From: Xanthostigma xanthostigma
Taxonomy: Eukaryota > Arthropoda > Insecta > Raphidioptera > Raphidiidae
DNA length: 64,000 bases
Reading direction: 5' to 3'
Assembly (NCBI GenBank): GCA_963575645.1
Contig: OY754465.1
Span: 40,636,401 to 40,700,400, forward strand
The notes below the pieces were generated by a model. That model was given only the letters and a program-made list of their open reading frames with translations, made no database searches and was not told the origin of the DNA. A program made the translations under genes and the position numbers. Of this stretch, positions 3,290 through 63,278 are shown piece after piece (the first letter of the stretch is position 1; each line of letters opens with the position of its first letter).

Positions 3290-3410
3290 GGGGGAGGAAC
3301 AATTTAGAAAGAAGTTTAACGATTTTTCGCTTGTGGCCGAGCTTTCGACAAATTTATTTTCATCTTTAGGGCCTCAGGCTAGTTAGAAGATGGTAAATTT
3401 TACTAATTTT
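3290..3410 (-). mobile_element. Fragment of hammerhead-motif element (63-kb family)
   Basis: The reverse complement matches the inner part of the element at 62865-63265, including ggccacaagcga and the neighbouring aggaacaat. It contains a decayed form of the hammerhead-like motif at 3335-3373. There the 4-base stem I (ggcc with ggcc) survives, but CTGARGA has become CTAAAGA and GAAACGTT has become GAAAGCTC. Only one arm is present. Confidence 0.55.
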
Positions 3411-12183: not shown

Positions 12184-12442
12184 CAAATCTCTGATTAACG
12201 TCTGATTAGAACTCTTCAATAAATAAAATTATCGACCAATTTATAAAAAAAATCTTTCACGAATTTCAAAATAAATAGAAACTAAATATTATTTTTTTTT
12301 TATATTTTTAGATCCGTTCTGAAGAAAATCCAAATCCGGATCGAAACGTTCTGAAGAAGATCCAAATCCGAATAGAAACGTTAATGTATTATTTTTTGTT
12401 AATATATTGTCTGAAAAATTGGTCGCTAATTTTATTTATTGA
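12184..12442. mobile_element. Palindromic element family A copy with 13-bp target duplication
   Basis: Flanked by direct repeats ataataaaataca at 12171-12183 and 12443-12455, so the boundaries are well defined. The left end has the family extension gattaacgtctgattaga before the arm, and the right end stops at the end of the opposite arm. The interior carries two tandem hammerhead-like cores (12315-12386). There is no ORF. Target duplications of this length fit retroelement insertion, as in Penelope-like elements, better than cut-and-paste DNA transposons. Confidence 0.75.
12315..12386 (+). ncRNA. Tandem pair of hammerhead-like cores
   Basis: Two consecutive 32-base units (12319-12350 and 12351-12382) each read CTGAAGA, a hairpin, then GAAACGTT. 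The cgtt that ends unit one doubles as the 5' stem I strand of unit two. Unit two then finds aatg (12383-12386) as stem I partner. Point changes have weakened stem II in both units. The single-unit form is seen at 30339-30378. Confidence 0.4.
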
Positions 12443-12455
12443 ATAATAAAATACA

Positions 12456-14160
12456 TTTATGACGTTCGTTACCTATGGTTTCACATGTAAAATTTATGAC
12501 AGTACGCTTGTCAGTTGACTCATTTAATCAATCACAGCAGGGGGGAACTTTTTTATTTTCATAATATTTATGAGATCACAAAATTTGCAGAGAACTTTCC
12601 TTTAAACGTGTATAAAATAAAAAAATAGTTTTGAAAAGTATATAATTATAATTGATGAAAAAAAACCGTCATAGAATACATCGCTTCTACGCATGTACTA
12701 ATTTTCTTAAAAAACAGTAGGACTTTCTCTATGTTCGTGTCAAATATCCTATTAAAATTCGATTTTGATCCGCTCGTCCGTTTGACCGGTATCATACTGA
12801 CATATGAACAGCCTTTTTGCAAAAACACGTTTTTTACATTCCGTAAGCCTCAAGCAGGGAAAAGTAAAGTTTGACCTAAATTAATATCATTCACTTGTGG
12901 AGATGGTAAACAATGTATTTTTATTTAAAAAACAGAAGCATAAGTTTTTTAAGAAAAACGCTTATTCTCGAACACACTGTATAAGACAATAAAATATACT
13001 TCATTCTATAGATAATGTGAGGTGTTGGAAAAAAGGTGAGGTACAAAACGGAGAGATGTAAAAAATAAAATTTATATTTTGTTTATTAAGTTTGTACCCG
13101 GTACCTCCACCATCATTTTATGAATTTTATCGAGGATGAAAAACTGACAAACATTTATGTTGTTCACATCTTTTATAAAATTGTCCTATAAGTTGTCTAC
13201 AAATTCGGTTACACTGATTGTTACATTATATTTTTTTTAATCAAAATATTTTTCATTTCCAAAAAGCAAAAGCTATAACGAAATATTGTAATATTGTTCA
13301 TTAATAATTAATTAATTAATTAAGTAACAATGAGGGCAGATATCTCAGTAGAGTAGATACTTGCATGTCATCTTTTATTGTGAAGAACAAAAATATACAT
13401 CAATTAAAATACCCTGGTAGTCGAAGCACACTTTTTTTTCCATAAATAAAAAAAAAATACAACTAAAATATGAGTAACATATCTAAACGTTATGAAGCGC
13501 TGGCGTCGTAAAACGTAGCTTTATTTATCATGTATTTTTTAATGTTTACATCAAAGTTAGGCTAATAAAAATATGACATTACCAAAGACCGTTTGTAGTC
13601 AGTGTGGCTAAGAGACTTGTTTAAATGGCACAACTTTAATAATTAATGTTTCACGGATTTTAGAGTTTTGTTAAAAATTTACATTCATTTTCGTTCTGAT
13701 TAATAAAAATGTGATGAAAAATTTCTCGAAAGTACACATAGATATGCGCAGAATTTTGTTCAGGGGGGCAAAAGTTATAAGAGTAAATACTTTCGGTTAT
13801 CATACTGCAATTAGACTATAGACAAAATGTTCTAGGTGATACTTTTACTATTTACCGTTGGATTTTTTACGTTGCGGCATCATAAAGACAAAACTGAACG
13901 CACACTAAAATTTTAATTTATCAACCTATCAAAAGTTTGTATCTAGAGTCTACTATAATATAATAAAAGTATAATATAACATTTATTATAAAATGGCTTA
14001 TATTTCTTTGTTTGGTACATGTTTAATTTTTTAGGTGTTATGTAAAATAATTTTTGTTTAAGAGAGCTTAAGATCGCGAAGTGTTTTTTGGTGTTTATTA
14101 TGTTTAATCACAAAACTACTTTTGACGGCTATTTGTCGTGGATTAGTTATGAATTTTCAT
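12456..14160. other. No gene recognised
   Basis: A+T-rich. At 13400-13440 the minus strand has aaaagtgtgcttcgacta, which recurs at 47925 and in decayed form at 59772 (plus strand). The region 12640-12860 resembles decayed interspersed repeat. No coding support. Confidence 0.45.
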
Positions 14161-14261
14161 TCTTGAAGGCGATCGCCGAAAGGAGGCCGAAACGTTGAAT
14201 TAAAAATGTATGTACTAACTTAACAAGCACAATAAACCGTAAGTTTTACTTAAGAATAGCA

Positions 14262-17000: not shown

Positions 17001-17884
17001 TAGTCCGCCATCTTTAGAAGTCCGCCATATTGGATTTAAACTAGTCACTTTATTTTTCGAGTTATTCTCAGCAAACCCTTTCATTTGATACCCATATTGT
17101 AGGAAAGCATAATAAAATTAGTCCGCCATCTTTAGAAGTCCGCCATATTGAATTAAGAGTGACGTCACTTTATTTTTCGAGTTATTCTCAGCAAGCCCTT
17201 TCATTTGATACCCATATTGTAGGAAAGCATAATAAAATTAGTCCGCTATCTTTAGAAGTCCGCCATATTGGATTTAGAGTGTCGTCACTTTATTTTTCGA
17301 GTTATTCTCAGCAAGCCCTTTCATTTGATACCCATATTATAGGAAAGCACAATAAAATTAGTCCGCCATCTTTAGAAGTCCGCCATATTGGATTTAGAGT
17401 GACGTCACTTTATTTTTCGAGTTATTCTCAGCAAACCCTTTCATTTGATACCCATATTGTAGGAAAGCATAATAAAATTAGTCCGCCATCTTTAGAAGTC
17501 CGCCATATTGGATTTAGAATGTCGTCACTTTAATATTCGAGTTATTCTCAGCAAACCCTTTCATTTGATACCCATATTGTAGGAAAGCATAATAAAATTA
17601 GTCCGCCATCTTTAGAAGTCCGCCATATTGGATTAAGAGTGACGTCACTTTATTTTTCGAGTTATTCTCAGCAAGCCCTTTCATTTGATACCCATATTGT
17701 AGGAAAGCATAATAAAATTAGTCCGCCATCTTTAGAAGTCCGCCATATTGGATTTAGAGTGTCGTCACTTTATTTTTCGAGTTATTCTCAGCAAGCCCTT
17801 TCATTTGATACCCATATTATAGGAAAGCACAATAAAATTAGTCCGCCATCTTTAGAAGTCCGCCATATTTGATTTAGAGTGACG
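17001..17884 (+). repeat. 120-bp minisatellite, about 7.4 units
   Basis: Units start at 17001, 17121, 17241, 17361, 17481, 17601, 17721 and partly at 17841, with an exact 120-bp period. Each carries agtccgccatctttagaag, ccgccatattgga, a gacgtcac or gtcgtcac variant and tttcatttgataccca. Units at 17281 and 17761 share private changes (attat, gcacaat) and lie exactly 480 bp apart, showing a four-unit duplication. Because 120 is a multiple of three, one frame stays open over several units (17159-17533, 17639-17872). A single diverged relative is at 40062-40290. Confidence 0.92.
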
Positions 17885-29804: not shown

Positions 29805-29930
29805 CATTCCCATTTATAGCATTGAAGAAGTTGCAAATCGGGATCAAAACGTTAATTGTTTGAATTATTATATTATTTAATTTTTGTCAGCATATTCTCT
29901 GAAAAATTGCTCGGTAATTTTATTGTCATA
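29805..29930 (+). mobile_element. Decayed single arm of palindromic family A
   Basis: Reads ttgaagaagttgcaaatcgg, then gatcaaaacgtt, then through tctgaaaaattg to taattttattg. This matches the right arm of 30216-30472, 400 bp away, with many substitutions. GAAACGTT has become CAAAACGTT, so the hammerhead-like motif is dead here. Confidence 0.6.
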
Positions 29931-29993: not shown

Positions 29994-30280
29994 AAAGTCC
30001 TGCTTCGAGCAGCCTAGACGACATCAAGAATACACTTTTATCGTGAGAGTAAAAAAATAATTTTTTAATTAATTTAAATAAAGTTTTAACAGAAATGGTG
30101 CGATTTAATTAATGATTTACTCTATTCTTCTGACCAGCTTTTACTGTGAGTGGGGAAAGAATGTGCATATCCTGCGATTTCGCAGAATTCTCGTTATCGA
30201 ACTGAGTTTATTTCCTTCAATAAATAAAATTATCGACCAATTTTTCAGACAATATATTAACAAACAATATAAAATTAATA

Positions 30281-30320
30281 CATTAACGTTTCGATCCGGA
30301 TTTGGATCTTCTTCAGAACG
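30281..30320 (-). ncRNA. Hammerhead-like motif (minus-strand arm)
   Basis: Exact mirror image of 30339-30378. Transcription of either strand through the palindrome yields one sense motif and one antisense motif that can pair with each other, so folding as a ribozyme would compete with the long hairpin. Confidence 0.4.
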
Positions 30321-30338
30321 GATCTAAAAATTTAGATC

Positions 30339-30378
30339 CGTTCTGAAGAAGATCCAAATCCGGATCGAAACGTTAATG
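30339..30378 (+). ncRNA. Hammerhead-like motif (plus-strand arm)
   Basis: Stem I cgtt (30339-30342) with aatg (30375-30378), including one G-U pair. Core CTGAAGA (30343-30349) plus A. Stem II gatcc (30351-30355) with ggatc (30362-30366) and a 6-base loop. Then GAAA (30367-30370) and CGTT. A canonical hammerhead has CUGANGA and GAAA around stem II, as here, but also a stem III between GAAA and the cleavage site. Here stem III is reduced to the self-complementary ACGT, which could pair only between two molecules. There is also one extra base before stem II. Catalysis is unproven. Confidence 0.45.
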
Positions 30379-30721
30379 TATTAATTTTATATTGTTTGTT
30401 AATATATTGTCTGAAAAATTGGTCGATAATTTTATTTATTGAAGAGTTCTAATCAGACGTTAATCAAAGATTTGAGTTTATTTCCTCTTAGTTTATCTTT
30501 CCTTGGGCGCGGTAAAAAAATAAATCTTTTTTATAAAAAAATGCAGCGTTATTTCTGAAATTAACACGAAAAACTAAAGAAGGAAAGTCCAAAATGAGAC
30601 GGAACTAACAATAATGAGACGATACCGAAACCAAAACAACACTGCTATTCCTTTAATAACACAACTGTTGTGATATTTTCAGAAAAATTGTCTCTTGCAA
30701 AGCTTTAAAAACTGTATCCCT

Positions 30722-42112: not shown

Positions 42113-42890
42113 TTAACTAAAACCTCTCGTGTTGTGACGCCAGCTTAAATAATATGTATAATACGCGCGACGAATCAAAAAGGCTCGGAAGTTAGATGCG
42201 AATGCGGGTTACGCTTGTACAGTCTGTTGAAAAACTACAAACTCGCAATTCAACAAAACTAAAATAACTTGATAACAACTTGACAATAGCGTACTCGACT
42301 GTACTTTAAAGCAGGAAAGCGACAAGTGACAGAGGCAACGAGCGATCACGGCTAATCACCGACGAGCGCATGTTCCGTGCAGGTAGCTGGGAGGTGATGG
42401 GAGTCACAATGATTCTAAAATGTACCTTTGCGACGCTGTTTGTGACTAACTTCCGAACCCTTTAGATCCGTGGCGCGTATTATACGTAGTTTTGAAACAA
42501 AGCGTTGATTCACTTTAATCTTAAAACAGTAAACAGCCCCCTGTTATGATAGCATATTGACATTCGTGAAAGTAAAAAAGTATTCTTTCAGAGCGTTTTT
42601 GACTATACACTTCATATCGTGCGAAGTAAGAAGTCGAATGACTTGGATAACTGTTTCACGGTTTATATTATGTATCCGTAAACAGACCGATCACATATCT
42701 GCCGTTCGGAATTCGGATGCATCTACAGTCTACACTCTATACCATATTATGTATTCATAATATAACACAGTCGTGGGAGAAGAGTGGATACCGATACCAT
42801 TATAAACATACGCCACGTTACGATTTTATATTATATTTGTACAGAAGTTCAAAAAAAAAATATTAAATTTATTTGTCGTAGTCATGTCCA
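42113..42890. other. No gene recognised
   Basis: Moderate G+C until about 42440, then A+T-rich. No recognisable repeat or frame. Confidence 0.45.
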
Positions 42891-42964
42891 TTTGTTGAAT
42901 AAGAATTAGAAAATCACAGGAAAGTGGACAGGTTAAAGATAAGATAACACCTTTCTTTATAAAG

Positions 42965-43003
42965 AATAACGTTTCGCTGTTATATTACGCATCTTCAGAT
43001 ACT
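42965..43003 (-). ncRNA. Decayed hammerhead-like motif, family C
   Basis: The minus strand reads CTGAAGA, then a damaged stem II (tgcgtaatataacagc), then GAAACGTT. Stem I is weakened (gtat with attc). The plus-strand arm at 43110-43149 keeps both stems. Confidence 0.35.
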
Positions 43004-43109
43004 GAAATTTTGATACAAATAATTAGTTACATTAAGTTCTCAACATTGTAACATTTGTAACATTTTTGTTGAGAACTTAATGTAACTAATTCTTTGTATC
43101 AAATTTTCA

Positions 43110-43149
43110 GTATCTGAAGATGCTGTAATATAACAGCGAAACGTTATAC
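43110..43149 (+). ncRNA. Hammerhead-like motif, family C
   Basis: Stem I gtat (43110-43113) with atac (43146-43149). Core CTGAAGA (43114-43120) plus T. Stem II gctgt (43122-43126) with acagc (43133-43137). GAAACGTT at 43138-43145. The architecture equals 30339-30378 and 63168-63206 while both stems have different bases, which is compensatory variation. Confidence 0.45.
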
Positions 43150-43223
43150 TTTATAAAGAAAGGTGTTTTCTTATCTTTAATCTGTCCACTTTCCTGTGAT
43201 TTTCTAATTCTTATTGAATTTAT

Positions 43224-43431
43224 TACATTACAGAGTAGCTGCTGTTTGCTACAATTGTTAAGAACACCCATTGTTACAAACGCTATCAACATTAGAAAAA
43301 TTTTAATTTTTCAAACAATGTCACGGGGTTCGTATCCCGACGGTGACATTGTTTGAAAAATTAAAATTGATAGCGTTTGTAACAATGGGTGTTCTTAACA
43401 ATTGTAGCAACAGTAGCTACTCTGTAATGTA
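43224..43431. mobile_element. Palindrome with tRNA T-arm-like centre
   Basis: Arms from tacattacagagtagct to agctactctgtaatgta are near-perfect complements. The centre folds as acaatgtcac, a gggttcgtatccc loop segment, and gtgacattgt. The central segment looks like a box B or T arm. It abuts the family C palindrome with only a few bases between. Confidence 0.7.
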
Positions 43432-44135
43432 TTATAGTAATTACGAACTATACTGTAAAAGAACTCATCAATTAAATTTATTAGTTTTCTGATAAAATAG
43501 TGAAATAAAACATAGCCTATACATTTAAAATCACAAAAAACGTTCATCAAAATTCGTCAAAGTTTTTAAGTTAAATCTGTTCAAACATGCAAACAAAGAA
43601 ATCGTTTATATTAAAAAATACACAGGTGTTGTAGAGCAAAATGATAGAAGTTCGAGTTTGATCTAGTTACCACATCCAATTCCTTGTGTCTGACGGACAC
43701 TTTTTAAGACCAATTGCAGAGTACATTCTATAAGTCAATGACATACTATAATGTGTATAGGTTACTTTATTTGTACAGATGCATATTCATATTATTATGT
43801 ATGCATACATAGATATATATCTACACTACTTATTTGTAGTTGTCGTCATTGTTTTGTTTACTACCCTTCACTACAGACAAAAGCCAAATATTGACCAGTT
43901 CGATTTGATGAAAATATGTTAGTGGCGAGGGCTAGCCTATACGATTATTAAATATTTTGCATGCAACGAGTCGGGAATTTTATGCTCTTTTGTCGTGATA
44001 TTAGCTTTACGTAGCTGCAAATTGAATCAATCCCTGGGTTCCTAATAAAAAAAGAAGGTGTGTGATTAATACCACATAGTGGAAGTGTAACTCTCTCTCT
44101 TACTGATTACTGAAAATACTTGTAGGCGCACAGTT
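43432..44135. other. No gene recognised
   Basis: A+T-rich, no recognisable repeat or coding frame. Confidence 0.5.
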
Positions 44136-49505: not shown

Positions 49506-49866
49506 AAAGTATTTTTATTTTTTAATTTTTAGTGACTGCAATACGTAGTGTGCACGTTAATTGTCGACTACTTTCTTAATATTTCATTACTGATTTAAGT
49601 AAAATTTCACCCTGAAATTATGCCTTATTAAATAGAGTAAGAAAGAATAATCAAAATTGATTCACAAATTAATCTTGCAGGTATGAGGTAACATATGTAA
49701 AAACCCATCTTTTAACCCGTTGAAAACCGATTTAATAAAATAATATATGGTACCAATCGATAAACAATCTTTGATTAACGTCTGATTAGAACTCTTCAAT
49801 AAATAAAATTATCGACAATTTTTTCAGACAAATATATTAACAAAAAAAAATATAATTAATACATTT

Positions 49867-50118: not shown

Positions 50119-50158
50119 CAGTTCTGAAGAAGATCCAAATCCGGATCGAAACGTAAAT
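50119..50158 (+). ncRNA. Hammerhead-like motif, family A variant
   Basis: CTGAAGA starts at 50123, stem II gatcc with ggatc is intact, followed by GAAACGTAAATG. Same lost T as in the left arm, showing that the two arms share history (copied or converted) in this insert. Confidence 0.35.
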
Positions 50159-50239
50159 GTATTATTTTTTTTTTTTTTGTTAATATATTTGTCTGAAAAA
50201 TTGGTCGATAATTTTATTTATTGACCAATCGATAAACAT

Positions 50240-51649: not shown

Positions 51650-51852
51650 AAAATATTTTTAACAAAAAAATTGAACTGACTTCACACTAAAAAGTAAAAA
51701 ATAATTGCGTATTGAAATGTTTTGGAGTCGGTGTAGTTCTCGGAATAGATTTCATTTTGGCTGACACCGACTCCAAAACATTTCAATAAGTACGCAATTA
51801 TTTTTTACTTTTTAGTGTGAAGTCGATTCAATTTTTTTGTTAAAAATATTTT
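51650..51852. mobile_element. Foldback with 85-bp arms, RTE-related
   Basis: Arms 51650-51734 and 51764-51852 are near-perfect complements containing ttttggagtcggtgt and cacactaaaaagtaaaaaat. The 29-base loop (ctcggaatagatttcatttt) and the agtcggtgt phrase are familiar from lepidopteran RTE-type 3' ends. It lies directly upstream of such an end. Confidence 0.75.
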
Positions 51853-62850: not shown

Positions 62851-62864
62851 TAGTAAGAAGAGTA

Positions 62865-63265
62865 GTAGAAGTTTTGTTCCAAAATATGTATTGAAGGAGA
62901 TTTATTTGGTTGAGGAACAATAGAACAGAATAGAACAGAACAATTTTATCAAAAAAACTGTTTTACGATATTTTTAAATTAAAAATTTTGTTAAAATTCA
63001 TAATTTTAAATGATCATGTATAGGTCCTACAATAATCTACACAATTTACCATCTCAACTTGCATTGAGGTATGTTATAATGTTTGGTTTATCTGATTTGT
63101 AATGCATTTATTTGTAATTTAGAAATCATAATAATACTAATGTAATTAAATACTATACATGTTCATAGGCCCTGAGGATGAAAATATAATTTTCGAAACG
63201 TTGGCCACAAGCGATACTTTGATAAAGCTTATTTCTATTGTTCCTCAACCAAATAAATCTCCTTC
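62865..63265 (+). mobile_element. Palindromic element with hammerhead-like motif (63-kb family)
   Basis: Perfect 35-bp inverted repeats (tgaaggagatttatttggtt and onward, about 62893-62927; mirrored 63233-63267) enclose the motif at 63168-63206. Flanking agtaagaagagta (62852-62864) and agtaagtagagta (63266-63278) differ at one base and look like a 13-bp target duplication. The left end extends beyond the arm by about 28 bases, giving the same one-sided asymmetry as family A. The 74-codon frame at 63159 is an artefact. Confidence 0.7.
63168..63206 (+). ncRNA. Hammerhead-like motif, 63-kb family
   Basis: Stem I ggcc (63168-63171) with ggcc (63203-63206). Core CTGAGGA (63172-63178) plus T. Stem II gaaaa (63180-63184) with ttttc (63190-63194). 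GAAACGTT at 63195-63202. Same layout as 30339-30378 and 43110-43149 with different stem bases. It lacks a closed stem III, so it is not a textbook hammerhead. Confidence 0.45.
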
Positions 63266-63278
63266 AGTAAGTAGAGTA

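What the first reader, a model, noticed from the sequence alone, without database searches (positions are those of the whole stretch)
30339..30378. A hammerhead-like RNA core conserved by covariation across unrelated palindromic elements
Seen: at 30339-30378, 43110-43149 and 63168-63206 the same layout recurs, a 4-bp stem I, CTGARGA plus one base, a 5-bp stem II with a 5- to 6-base loop, GAAACGTT, then the stem I partner. Stem I is cgtt/aatg, gtat/atac or ggcc/ggcc. Stem II is gatcc/ggatc, gctgt/acagc or gaaaa/ttttc. The surrounding elements share nothing else, so pairing is kept while sequence is not. Known: hammerhead ribozymes have CUGANGA and GAAA around stem II and occur in Penelope-like elements. 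Deviations: one extra base before stem II and no closed stem III. The self-complementary ACGT could form stem III only between two copies, as in double-hammerhead models.
Basis: partly seen in the sequence, partly recalled or inferred. Interest (0 to 1): 0.88.

Follow-up and report, generated by a model that had tools for sequence, protein, structure and literature searches.

The report
Penelope retrotransposon hammerhead ribozymes in palindromes
The repeated RNA motif is the small hammerhead ribozyme that Penelope-type jumping genes are known to carry, and the palindromes around it are broken copies left by those jumping genes; the motif is of a known kind, but the copies show a regular insertion pattern that bears on how such elements insert.

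Summary
CTGARGA...GAAACGTT occurs 7 times in the window (0 in 100 shuffles); CTGANGA...GAAACGTT 13,647 times in the 623-Mb host genome (reversed pattern 42). Stems I and II covary (92% of cells paired, 50% in shuffles). It is the minimal, stem III-less type I hammerhead of Penelope-like elements (PLEs), a published class said to cleave as dimers. In relatives elsewhere in the genome, the families of all three window elements have GIY-YIG or RT/GIY-YIG coding sequence upstream; 27 of 30 GIY-YIG loci, many of one family, carry a hammerhead downstream. The palindromes are PLE insertions: head-to-head arms, target-site duplications, one 'tail'. In the two full palindromes a long hairpin would sequester the ribozyme. 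Less expected: in one family 48 of 49 copy 3' ends fall at two sites, about 54 and 89 nt past the cleavage site, and in 14 of 14 paired copies one arm used each (40 of 1,611 candidates scored). This suggests two separate reverse-transcription starts per insertion, one per target strand. Cleavage is untested.

The parts
30339..30378 (+). Element 1: minimal type I hammerhead core with stem I (GATCC family)
   Evidence: model R2 51.3 bits, E 3.7e-13 (this copy is in the model)
30281..30320 (-). Element 1: same hammerhead on the other arm
30217..30472 (.). Element 1: whole head-to-head PLE insertion; arms 30215-30328 and 30331-30444 are 100% complementary; right arm carries the extra tail 30445-30472
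30203..30216 (.). Element 1: left target-site duplication TGAGTTTATTTCCT
30473..30486 (.). Element 1: right target-site duplication TGAGTTTATTTCCT
43110..43149 (+). Element 2: minimal type I hammerhead (GCTGT family)
   Evidence: 53.1 bits, E 9.5e-14 (this copy is in the model)
42964..43002 (-). Element 2: hammerhead on the left arm with a 1-base deletion in stem II
42874..43216 (.). Element 2: head-to-head PLE insertion, tail on the left arm. Candidate 8-bp duplication AATTTATT at 42866-42873 and 43217-43224, chosen because its place fits; 8 bp is not above the null and a 9-bp repeat lies at places that do not fit
63168..63206 (+). Element 3: minimal type I hammerhead (GAAAA family)
   Evidence: 53.0 bits, E 1e-13 (this copy is in the model)
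62865..63266 (.). Element 3: asymmetric PLE insertion; short left arm with tail 62865-62925, long right arm without tail
62853..62864 (.). Element 3: likely left target-site duplication GTAAGAAGAGTA
   Evidence: read by eye; 11 of 12 letters equal the right copy; the exact-match scan found at most 7 there
63267..63278 (.). Element 3: likely right target-site duplication GTAAGTAGAGTA
   Evidence: read by eye
50120..50159 (+). Element 4: hammerhead with A17 (GATCC family)
   Evidence: 46.5 bits
49862..49901 (-). Element 4: hammerhead on the left arm, weakened stem II
   Evidence: 37.6 bits
49767..50223 (.). Element 4: head-to-head PLE insertion, tail on the left arm; 15-bp target-site duplication ACCAATCGATAAACA at 49752-49766 and 50224-50238
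12319..12382 (+). Direct tandem of two damaged hammerhead cores, 32-bp period (GATCC family)

Best explanation
The motif is the minimal type I hammerhead ribozyme of Penelope-like retroelements. It has stem I, the CUGANGA and GAA core plus one extra A or U before stem II, stem II, and no stem III of its own; the self-complementary ACGU that follows GAA can pair only with a second copy. In an ORF-bearing unit of this genome it lies just before the ORF and again after it (HHR, RT + GIY-YIG ORF, HHR, period 2,719 nt). Reverse transcription appears to start at two sites a short way 3' of the cleavage site (about +54 and +89 in the best sampled family; the two arms end 61-90 and 84-136 nt past the core in the other pairs measured), so the hammerhead is among the first sequences copied and is kept in many truncated copies. 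The palindromes are insertions in which both target strands primed cDNA on PLE RNA, one at each start site, and the two cDNAs were joined head to head. Shown here: sequence, covariation, link to PLE ORFs, insertion anatomy. Inferred: self-cleavage as a dimer or with help of the PLE protein; two-sided priming. The window copies are most likely inert by-products.
For: Covariation: 14 distinct rows, 92.0% of cells paired against 50.2 +/- 3.7 in shuffles (0 of 500), 56 cells with changes on both sides against 17.6 +/- 3.4 (0 of 500), score 1.09 against 0.21, slid structures 0.14-0.24; the 10.1-11.1 pair is invariant G-C. Over 20 clusters, stem II 87/100 and stem I 56/80 cells paired against shuffled means of 53.0 and 31.2, maxima 68 and 48 in 2000 shuffles. 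Position 17: T 13,431, C 6,271, A 879, G 165 genome-wide, as expected of a hammerhead (H17). PLE link: RVT_1 + GIY-YIG in one ORF (L067 and L061); 27 of 30 GIY-YIG loci have a same-strand hammerhead downstream; the families of elements 1, 2 and 3 have GIY-YIG or RT + GIY-YIG coding sequence upstream in L003 (best E 3e-13), L085 (5e-20) and L084 (5e-6; 4e-7). Anatomy: of 22 neighbouring pairs under 2 kb, 21 are -/+, 1 +/+, 0 +/-; duplications of at least 11 bp in 19 of 23 pairs against 14 of 506 mismatched pairs; two 3'-end classes and 14 of 14 mixed pairs. The published PAc element has a reverse-transcription start 111-118 nt into the ORF and its hammerhead cut 26 nt into the ORF, that is 85-92 nt past the cut (PMC11167929), matching the +89 class.
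Against: Rfam finds no hammerhead in the window even at E<=10. No cleavage was measured. The number of pairs with a double change (8 of 9) is not above its shuffles (251 of 500). Folded alone, cores 1 and 2 prefer other folds by 0.2 and 1.4 kcal/mol. The PAc hammerhead showed no cleavage without its protein, and its catalytic mutants still inserted (PMC11167929), so the ribozyme's role is unclear. G17 is not absent: 165 copies, with at least three recurring groups among those listed. 18 of the 30 GIY-YIG loci (L063-L080) match the profile nearly identically or carry one same family, several loci overlap, and the model was partly built from two of the loci (L057, L080). Element 3 has the weakest GIY-YIG link, and its core lies beyond the stretch fetched as L084. 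One search scored only the 40 best of 1,611 candidates.
Confidence: 0.9

Rival explanations
1. The conserved core is not used as a ribozyme here but as a recognition hairpin for the PLE reverse transcriptase/endonuclease; the hammerhead resemblance is inherited.
For: Cleavage-dead PAc hammerheads still insert in vitro, and reads beginning or ending at the cut site were not found in RNA-seq (PMC11167929).
Against: The fixed letters are those of the hammerhead catalytic core; G10.1-C11.1 is invariant; position 17 is T, C or A far more than G. In PAc an RNA shortened to +20, which lacks most of the hammerhead, was still active as template.
Confidence: 0.1
2. The palindromes arise by snap-back self-priming of one cDNA instead of two separate starts on the two target strands (self-priming was proposed for A. 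vaga PLEs, there on an antisense template).
For: Some palindromes are perfect to the centre: element 1 with 2 nt between arms and the C4 cluster with 3,142 nt self-palindromic at 100%. Self-priming was argued from palindromic junctions in PMC3846280 (passages).
Against: If the tail-bearing cDNA folded back, its arm should be the longer one. In the GAGAG family the tail arm is the shorter in 7 of the 8 pairs where the listed starts differ clearly, the longer in one, and in 6 of 14 this cannot be told; window element 3 has a 61-nt tail arm and a right arm of about 330 nt.
Confidence: 0.2
3. The elements are animal non-LTR retrozymes: non-autonomous circular-RNA elements with a canonical type I hammerhead, not PLE remnants.
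For: Type I hammerheads in short repeats are typical of animal retrozymes (PMC7229834, passages).
Against: Canonical retrozyme hammerheads sit in short direct tandem repeats (PMC7229834). Here neighbours are head-to-head (21 of 22), stem III is missing, and PLE coding sequence lies upstream of relatives of the same families.
Confidence: 0.02
4. The palindromes are miniature DNA transposons (foldback or MITE type) and the core a chance inclusion.
For: Long inverted repeats and target-site duplications.
Against: The two outer ends are not equal: one arm runs further than the other (19 of 19 pairs with a duplication, 16 by 24 nt or more; 14 of 14); duplications vary in length and sequence; the core covaries across families and sits beside RT/GIY-YIG ORFs.
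Confidence: 0.01

Closest known systems
Minimal type I hammerhead ribozymes of Penelope-like elements (Cervera & de la Pena 2014; Lunse, Weinberg & Breaker 2017)
   Same: Type I core lacking helix III, thought to cleave as dimers, in PLE pLTRs of many animals. Known to me through passages of papers that cite them (PMC7761336, PMC6155905, PMC6466107, PMC7229834); the two primary papers are not held.
   Different: About a dozen families in one genome, nearly all with one extra A/U between A9 and stem II; whether the primary papers describe that base could not be checked.
Poseidon PLE of Anolis carolinensis, PAc (Frangieh et al. 2024, PMC11167929; parts 1 and 2 of 4 and passages read)
   Same: Hammerhead at the ORF start; cut site 26 nt after the start codon, a distance the ATG-bearing core of element 2 matches exactly (26 letters from ATG to the expected cut; counted); a reverse-transcription start 85-92 nt past the cut; tail of 30-40 nt; both target strands cut and extended.
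   Different: There no start-site difference between strands was seen in bulk; here, in the family counted, each insertion has one copy of each end class. The in-frame ATG of elements 2 and 3 runs into a stop within 4 codons.
EN-containing Penelope elements of the rotifer Adineta vaga (PMC3846280; passages read)
   Same: Inverted head-to-head pLTRs, a tail of about 31 bp on one of them, short target-site duplications, palindromic junctions.
   Different: The word hammerhead does not occur in the paper (listing); palindromes are explained by self-priming; duplications of 8-10 bp in the passages against mostly 11-17 bp here.

Membership tests
Hammerhead ribozyme (general) | Core C3 U4 G5 A6 N7 G8 A9, G12 A13 A14, A15.1-U16.1, H17 | tested here: met
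   All letters present; A and U of ACGU serve as 15.1 and 16.1; position 17 is T, C or A in 20,581 of 20,746 genome matches. Core list as in PMC3088659 (passage).
Hammerhead ribozyme (general) | Stem II abuts A9 directly | tested here: not met
   One extra base before stem II; first base after A9 is A 61, T 36, G 2, C 1 in 100 cores.
Hammerhead ribozyme (general) | Stems I and II supported by covariation | tested here: met
Hammerhead ribozyme (general) | Closed stem III | tested here: not met
   ACGT has no loop; possible only between two copies.
Hammerhead ribozyme (general) | Match to an Rfam hammerhead model | tested here: not met
   None at gathering scores or E<=10.
Hammerhead ribozyme (general) | Self-cleavage after H17 | not testable with these tools
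   No experiment possible.
Minimal PLE hammerhead | Type I core lacking helix III, in PLEs | tested here: met
   27 of 30 GIY-YIG loci; HHR-ORF-HHR unit on C4.
Minimal PLE hammerhead | Cleaves as a dimer | not testable with these tools
   Self-complementary ACGU is compatible; not measured.
Penelope-like element | One ORF with RT and GIY-YIG endonuclease | tested here: met
   L067: RVT_1 1.8e-11, GIY-YIG 1.1e-5; L061: 3.6e-11 and 1e-5. No PLE coding sequence was found in the window; for its families: L003 (GIY-YIG), L085 (RT and GIY-YIG), L084 (GIY-YIG).
Penelope-like element | Inverted head-to-head copies, tail on one arm, target-site duplication | tested here: met

The most novel reading that the evidence does not exclude
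Each PLE insertion uses both internal start sites exactly once. A dimeric PLE particle nicks both target strands; one 3' end is extended from the distal site (+89 in the family counted), the other from the proximal site (+54), on RNA still uncut at the 3' hammerhead. Cleavage at that hammerhead would part both start sites from the template, so the ribozyme would act as a timer or off-switch, perhaps by pairing the hammerheads at the two ends of one unit RNA through ACGU.
Probability: 0.35. Interest if true: 0.65.

Novelty: new member of a known kind. Interest (0 to 1): 0.42.

Why it matters
As a ribozyme it adds about a dozen covarying families to a published class, and it explains how palindromes without shared letters come to carry one core: they are debris of one retrotransposon type. 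The more useful part is the insertion record. The genome holds over 20,000 core matches; in the subset examined the 3' ends fall in two classes, one of each per insertion. PLE integration is poorly understood; the pattern makes a specific model (two starts, one per target strand) testable in the existing in vitro PAc system.

Tried and rejected
Rfam at gathering and at E<=10: no hammerhead; the best hits (MIR2599, mir-3913, MIR5565, MIR2619) are below their gathering scores and fall on palindromes. Seven frames of 120 aa or more in the window were listed but not searched against families; tblastn of seven query proteins against the window gave nothing at 1e-3 and one match at E 0.61. Starts at 182-187, 14-19 nt before the core, recur at 3 loci, perhaps the RNA 5' end (small sample). 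Snap-back self-priming: weakened. The first structure string was one column off on the 3' side; its pair count and model R1 were discarded and redone. Rows left out of alignment A1: 7 of the 20 clusters (L007, L039 and window 12319, GATCC relatives; L058, a GCTA relative; L081, imperfect stem II; L001 and L006:1501, probably chance); two window copies (30343, 63172) were added to the remaining 13. Of 21 -/+ pairs, 20 were fetched; all were chosen because both cores are intact. Lunse 2017, Cervera 2014, Arkhipova 2017 and Craig 2021 are not held (one search used a wrong DOI), so whether the extra base before stem II is in print is unknown to me; a search for it did not settle it.

Full report
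OBSERVATION. The three sites are as described. The pattern CTGARGA-N(12-30)-GAAACGTT has 7 exact copies in the window and none in 100 shuffles; a relaxed scan adds the pair 49866(-)/50124(+) ending GAAACGTA. In the window's own genome (623 Mb in 28 contigs; window at C2:40636401-40700400), CTGANGA-N(10-30)-GAAACGTT has 13,647 copies, the reversed pattern 42. This is not chance.

STRUCTURE. From the first 100 cores listed for C1 (up to 6.7 Mb), stem II with exactly one base before it and at least 4 pairs fits 76 of 100; the base after A9 is A 61, T 36, G 2, C 1. Clustering 74 copies from fetched loci and the window by their 3' flank gave 20 clusters (some are relatives of one another, two look like chance): stem II 87 of 100 cells paired and stem I 56 of 80, against shuffled means 53.0 and 31.2 and maxima 68 and 48 in 2000 shuffles. 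On an alignment of 15 chosen sequences (14 distinct), 92.0% of cells pair against 50.2 +/- 3.7, and 56 cells show changes on both sides against 17.6 +/- 3.4 (0 of 500 shuffles each); the count of pairs with a double change, 8 of 9, is not above shuffles (251 of 500). The ninth pair is invariant G-C at 10.1-11.1. The shuffles do not model relatedness, but sliding the partner by 1-3 columns drops the score from 1.09 to 0.14-0.24.

POSITION 17. The base just before the expected cut is T 13,431, C 6,271, A 879 and G 165 times (reversed-pattern controls 19, 39, 17, 17). Descent explains part of this, since copies are related. A17 occurs in repeated families. G17 is rare but also recurs: about 21 of the roughly 100 places listed belong to one divergent family (stem GCTAAC/GTTAGC), 6 are one identical GAAAA-type core and about 6 a GGCAT-type core (my reading). 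So the H17 preference is strong but not absolute. Rfam's hammerhead models do not match, even at E<=10; for a motif without its own stem III this is no surprise (inference).

HOST ELEMENT. GIY-YIG was sought in the genome: 37 matches, 30 given as loci. L067 and L061 carry RVT_1 and GIY-YIG in one open frame; a GIY-YIG domain is shared with no other retroelement subclass (PMC12910113, passage). With a covariance model from the cores, 27 of the 30 loci have a hammerhead on the same strand downstream of GIY-YIG at E<=0.05 (exceptions L052, opposite strand; L054, probably a host gene; L059, none). These are not independent: L063-L080 are mostly copies of one family, L060/L062, L067/L068/L069 and L077/L078 overlap, L057 and L080 helped to build the model, and L055 is marginal (E 0.047). 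On C4 one unit reads HHR, 804-aa frame, HHR with period 2,719 nt. For the window families: GATCC (elements 1, 4) has GIY-YIG about 190 nt upstream of the core in L003 (E 3e-13); GCTGT (element 2) has RT and GIY-YIG upstream of an identical core in L085 (E 5e-20); GAAAA (element 3) has GIY-YIG upstream of a family copy in L084 (E 5e-6; 4e-7), the weakest link, and that copy's core lies beyond the fetched stretch. Reversed proteins gave nothing better than E 0.29.

INSERTION ANATOMY. Of 22 neighbouring cores closer than 2 kb, 21 point away from each other (-/+), one is +/+, none +/-. In 23 such pairs (20 loci, 3 in the window; both cores intact by choice) the arms match outward past the core and, in most, stop 64-90 nt on; L039 and L047 stop early (9 and 32 nt), L038 runs on weakly, and L045 matches to the end of the 260 nt compared. 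Exact direct repeats of 11-17 bp flank 19 of 23; mismatched flanks give 11 or more in 14 of 506. In these 19 one arm is longer (shorter 61-90 nt, longer 84-136 nt past the core), by 24 nt or more in 16 and by 9, 13 and 18 nt in three. A search with 531 nt of one young family (cut site at query 231) scored the best 40 of 1,611 candidates and listed 56 hits; 7 run on into the element, and of 49 with a 3' end 27 lie at +49 to +60, 21 at +86 to +96, 1 at neither (I set the classes after seeing the ends). In all 14 loci of that list where both outer ends appear, one is proximal and one distal. In the element 2 family, 11 of 13 non-self -/+ pairs show one arm ending at +65 to +69 and the other running to the query's end at +73; in 2 both run to the end (my count). 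In the window, element 1 has its tail on the right, elements 2, 3 and 4 on the left (element 2 by a weak 8-bp repeat, element 3 by eye).

READING. Frangieh et al. (PMC11167929; parts 1-2 and passages) found for the Anolis element that reverse transcription starts inside the RNA at two adjacent sites that define the tail, most often 111-118 nt into the ORF; that the hammerhead cut is 26 nt into the ORF (so that start is 85-92 nt past the cut); and that both target strands are cut and extended. The +89 class here agrees, and the head-to-head form follows if the 3' end of each target strand primes a cDNA. The same paper saw no strand difference in start site in bulk; the one-of-each rule per insertion is my inference. 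PMC3846280 (passages) describes inverted pLTRs, a tail on one of them, duplications, and palindromic junctions read as self-priming. Perfect palindromes such as element 1 and the C4 cluster fit self-priming; the shorter tail arm in 7 of 8 informative pairs and element 3 do not.

CONSEQUENCE FOR THE RIBOZYME. Because copying starts just past it, the core is kept in many truncated copies, hence its abundance (inference). Of the 49 copies with a 3' end, 46 begin upstream of the cut site, so their templates were not cut there; three short tail arms begin 3' of it (239, 257, 283). Transcripts of elements 1 and 2 would fold as long hairpins (-175.8 and -219.1 kcal/mol against -106.8 and -160.9 with stems I and II enforced); element 3 keeps stems I and II in its best fold; alone, cores 1 and 2 prefer other folds by 0.2 and 1.4 kcal/mol. 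The window copies are therefore most likely inert; the covariation records selection in complete elements.

KNOWN OR NEW. PLE hammerheads that lack helix III and act as dimers are in print (Cervera & de la Pena 2014; Lunse et al. 2017, known to me only through passages of citing papers: PMC7761336, PMC6466107, PMC7229834, PMC6155905). So this is a new member of a known kind. My paper searches cover open-licence papers only; I saw no statement of the strict one-proximal, one-distal rule in the passages read, which is not proof that it is unpublished.

Noticed in passing
window 43205-43450: A second, different palindrome directly beside element 2 (arms 43246-43294/43362-43410, 96%), with a GC-rich centre; it gave a sub-threshold MIR2599 match.
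   Followed up: no
window 51693-51809: A near-perfect palindrome of about 117 bp with several sub-threshold microRNA-precursor matches on both strands.
   Followed up: no
window 17045-17533: Open frame of 162 aa built of about 40-residue repeats (SLYFSSYSQQ...), i.e. a tandem repeat of about 120 bp.
   Followed up: no
window 12319-12382: 32-bp direct tandem of the core whose unit ends share CGTT; probably a template jump or slippage at this microhomology.
   Followed up: partly
window 3331-3377 (-), 14155-14204 (+), 29817-29861 (+): Weaker hammerhead-model matches (22.3, 18.9 and 12.7 bits; the last at E 0.45), perhaps older PLE remnants.
   Followed up: no
L085:491-1808 (-): The GIY-YIG region of the element 2 family looks split by roughly 190-240 nt, possibly an intron.
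   Followed up: no
G000, GAAACGTG matches: At least three recurring groups with G at position 17, the largest with stem GCTAAC/GTTAGC: exceptions to the H17 rule.
   Followed up: no
L068:864-1394 (-), query 182-187: Several copies start 14-19 nt before the hammerhead core, including copies that run on past it towards the ORF: perhaps the 5' end of PLE RNA.
   Followed up: partly
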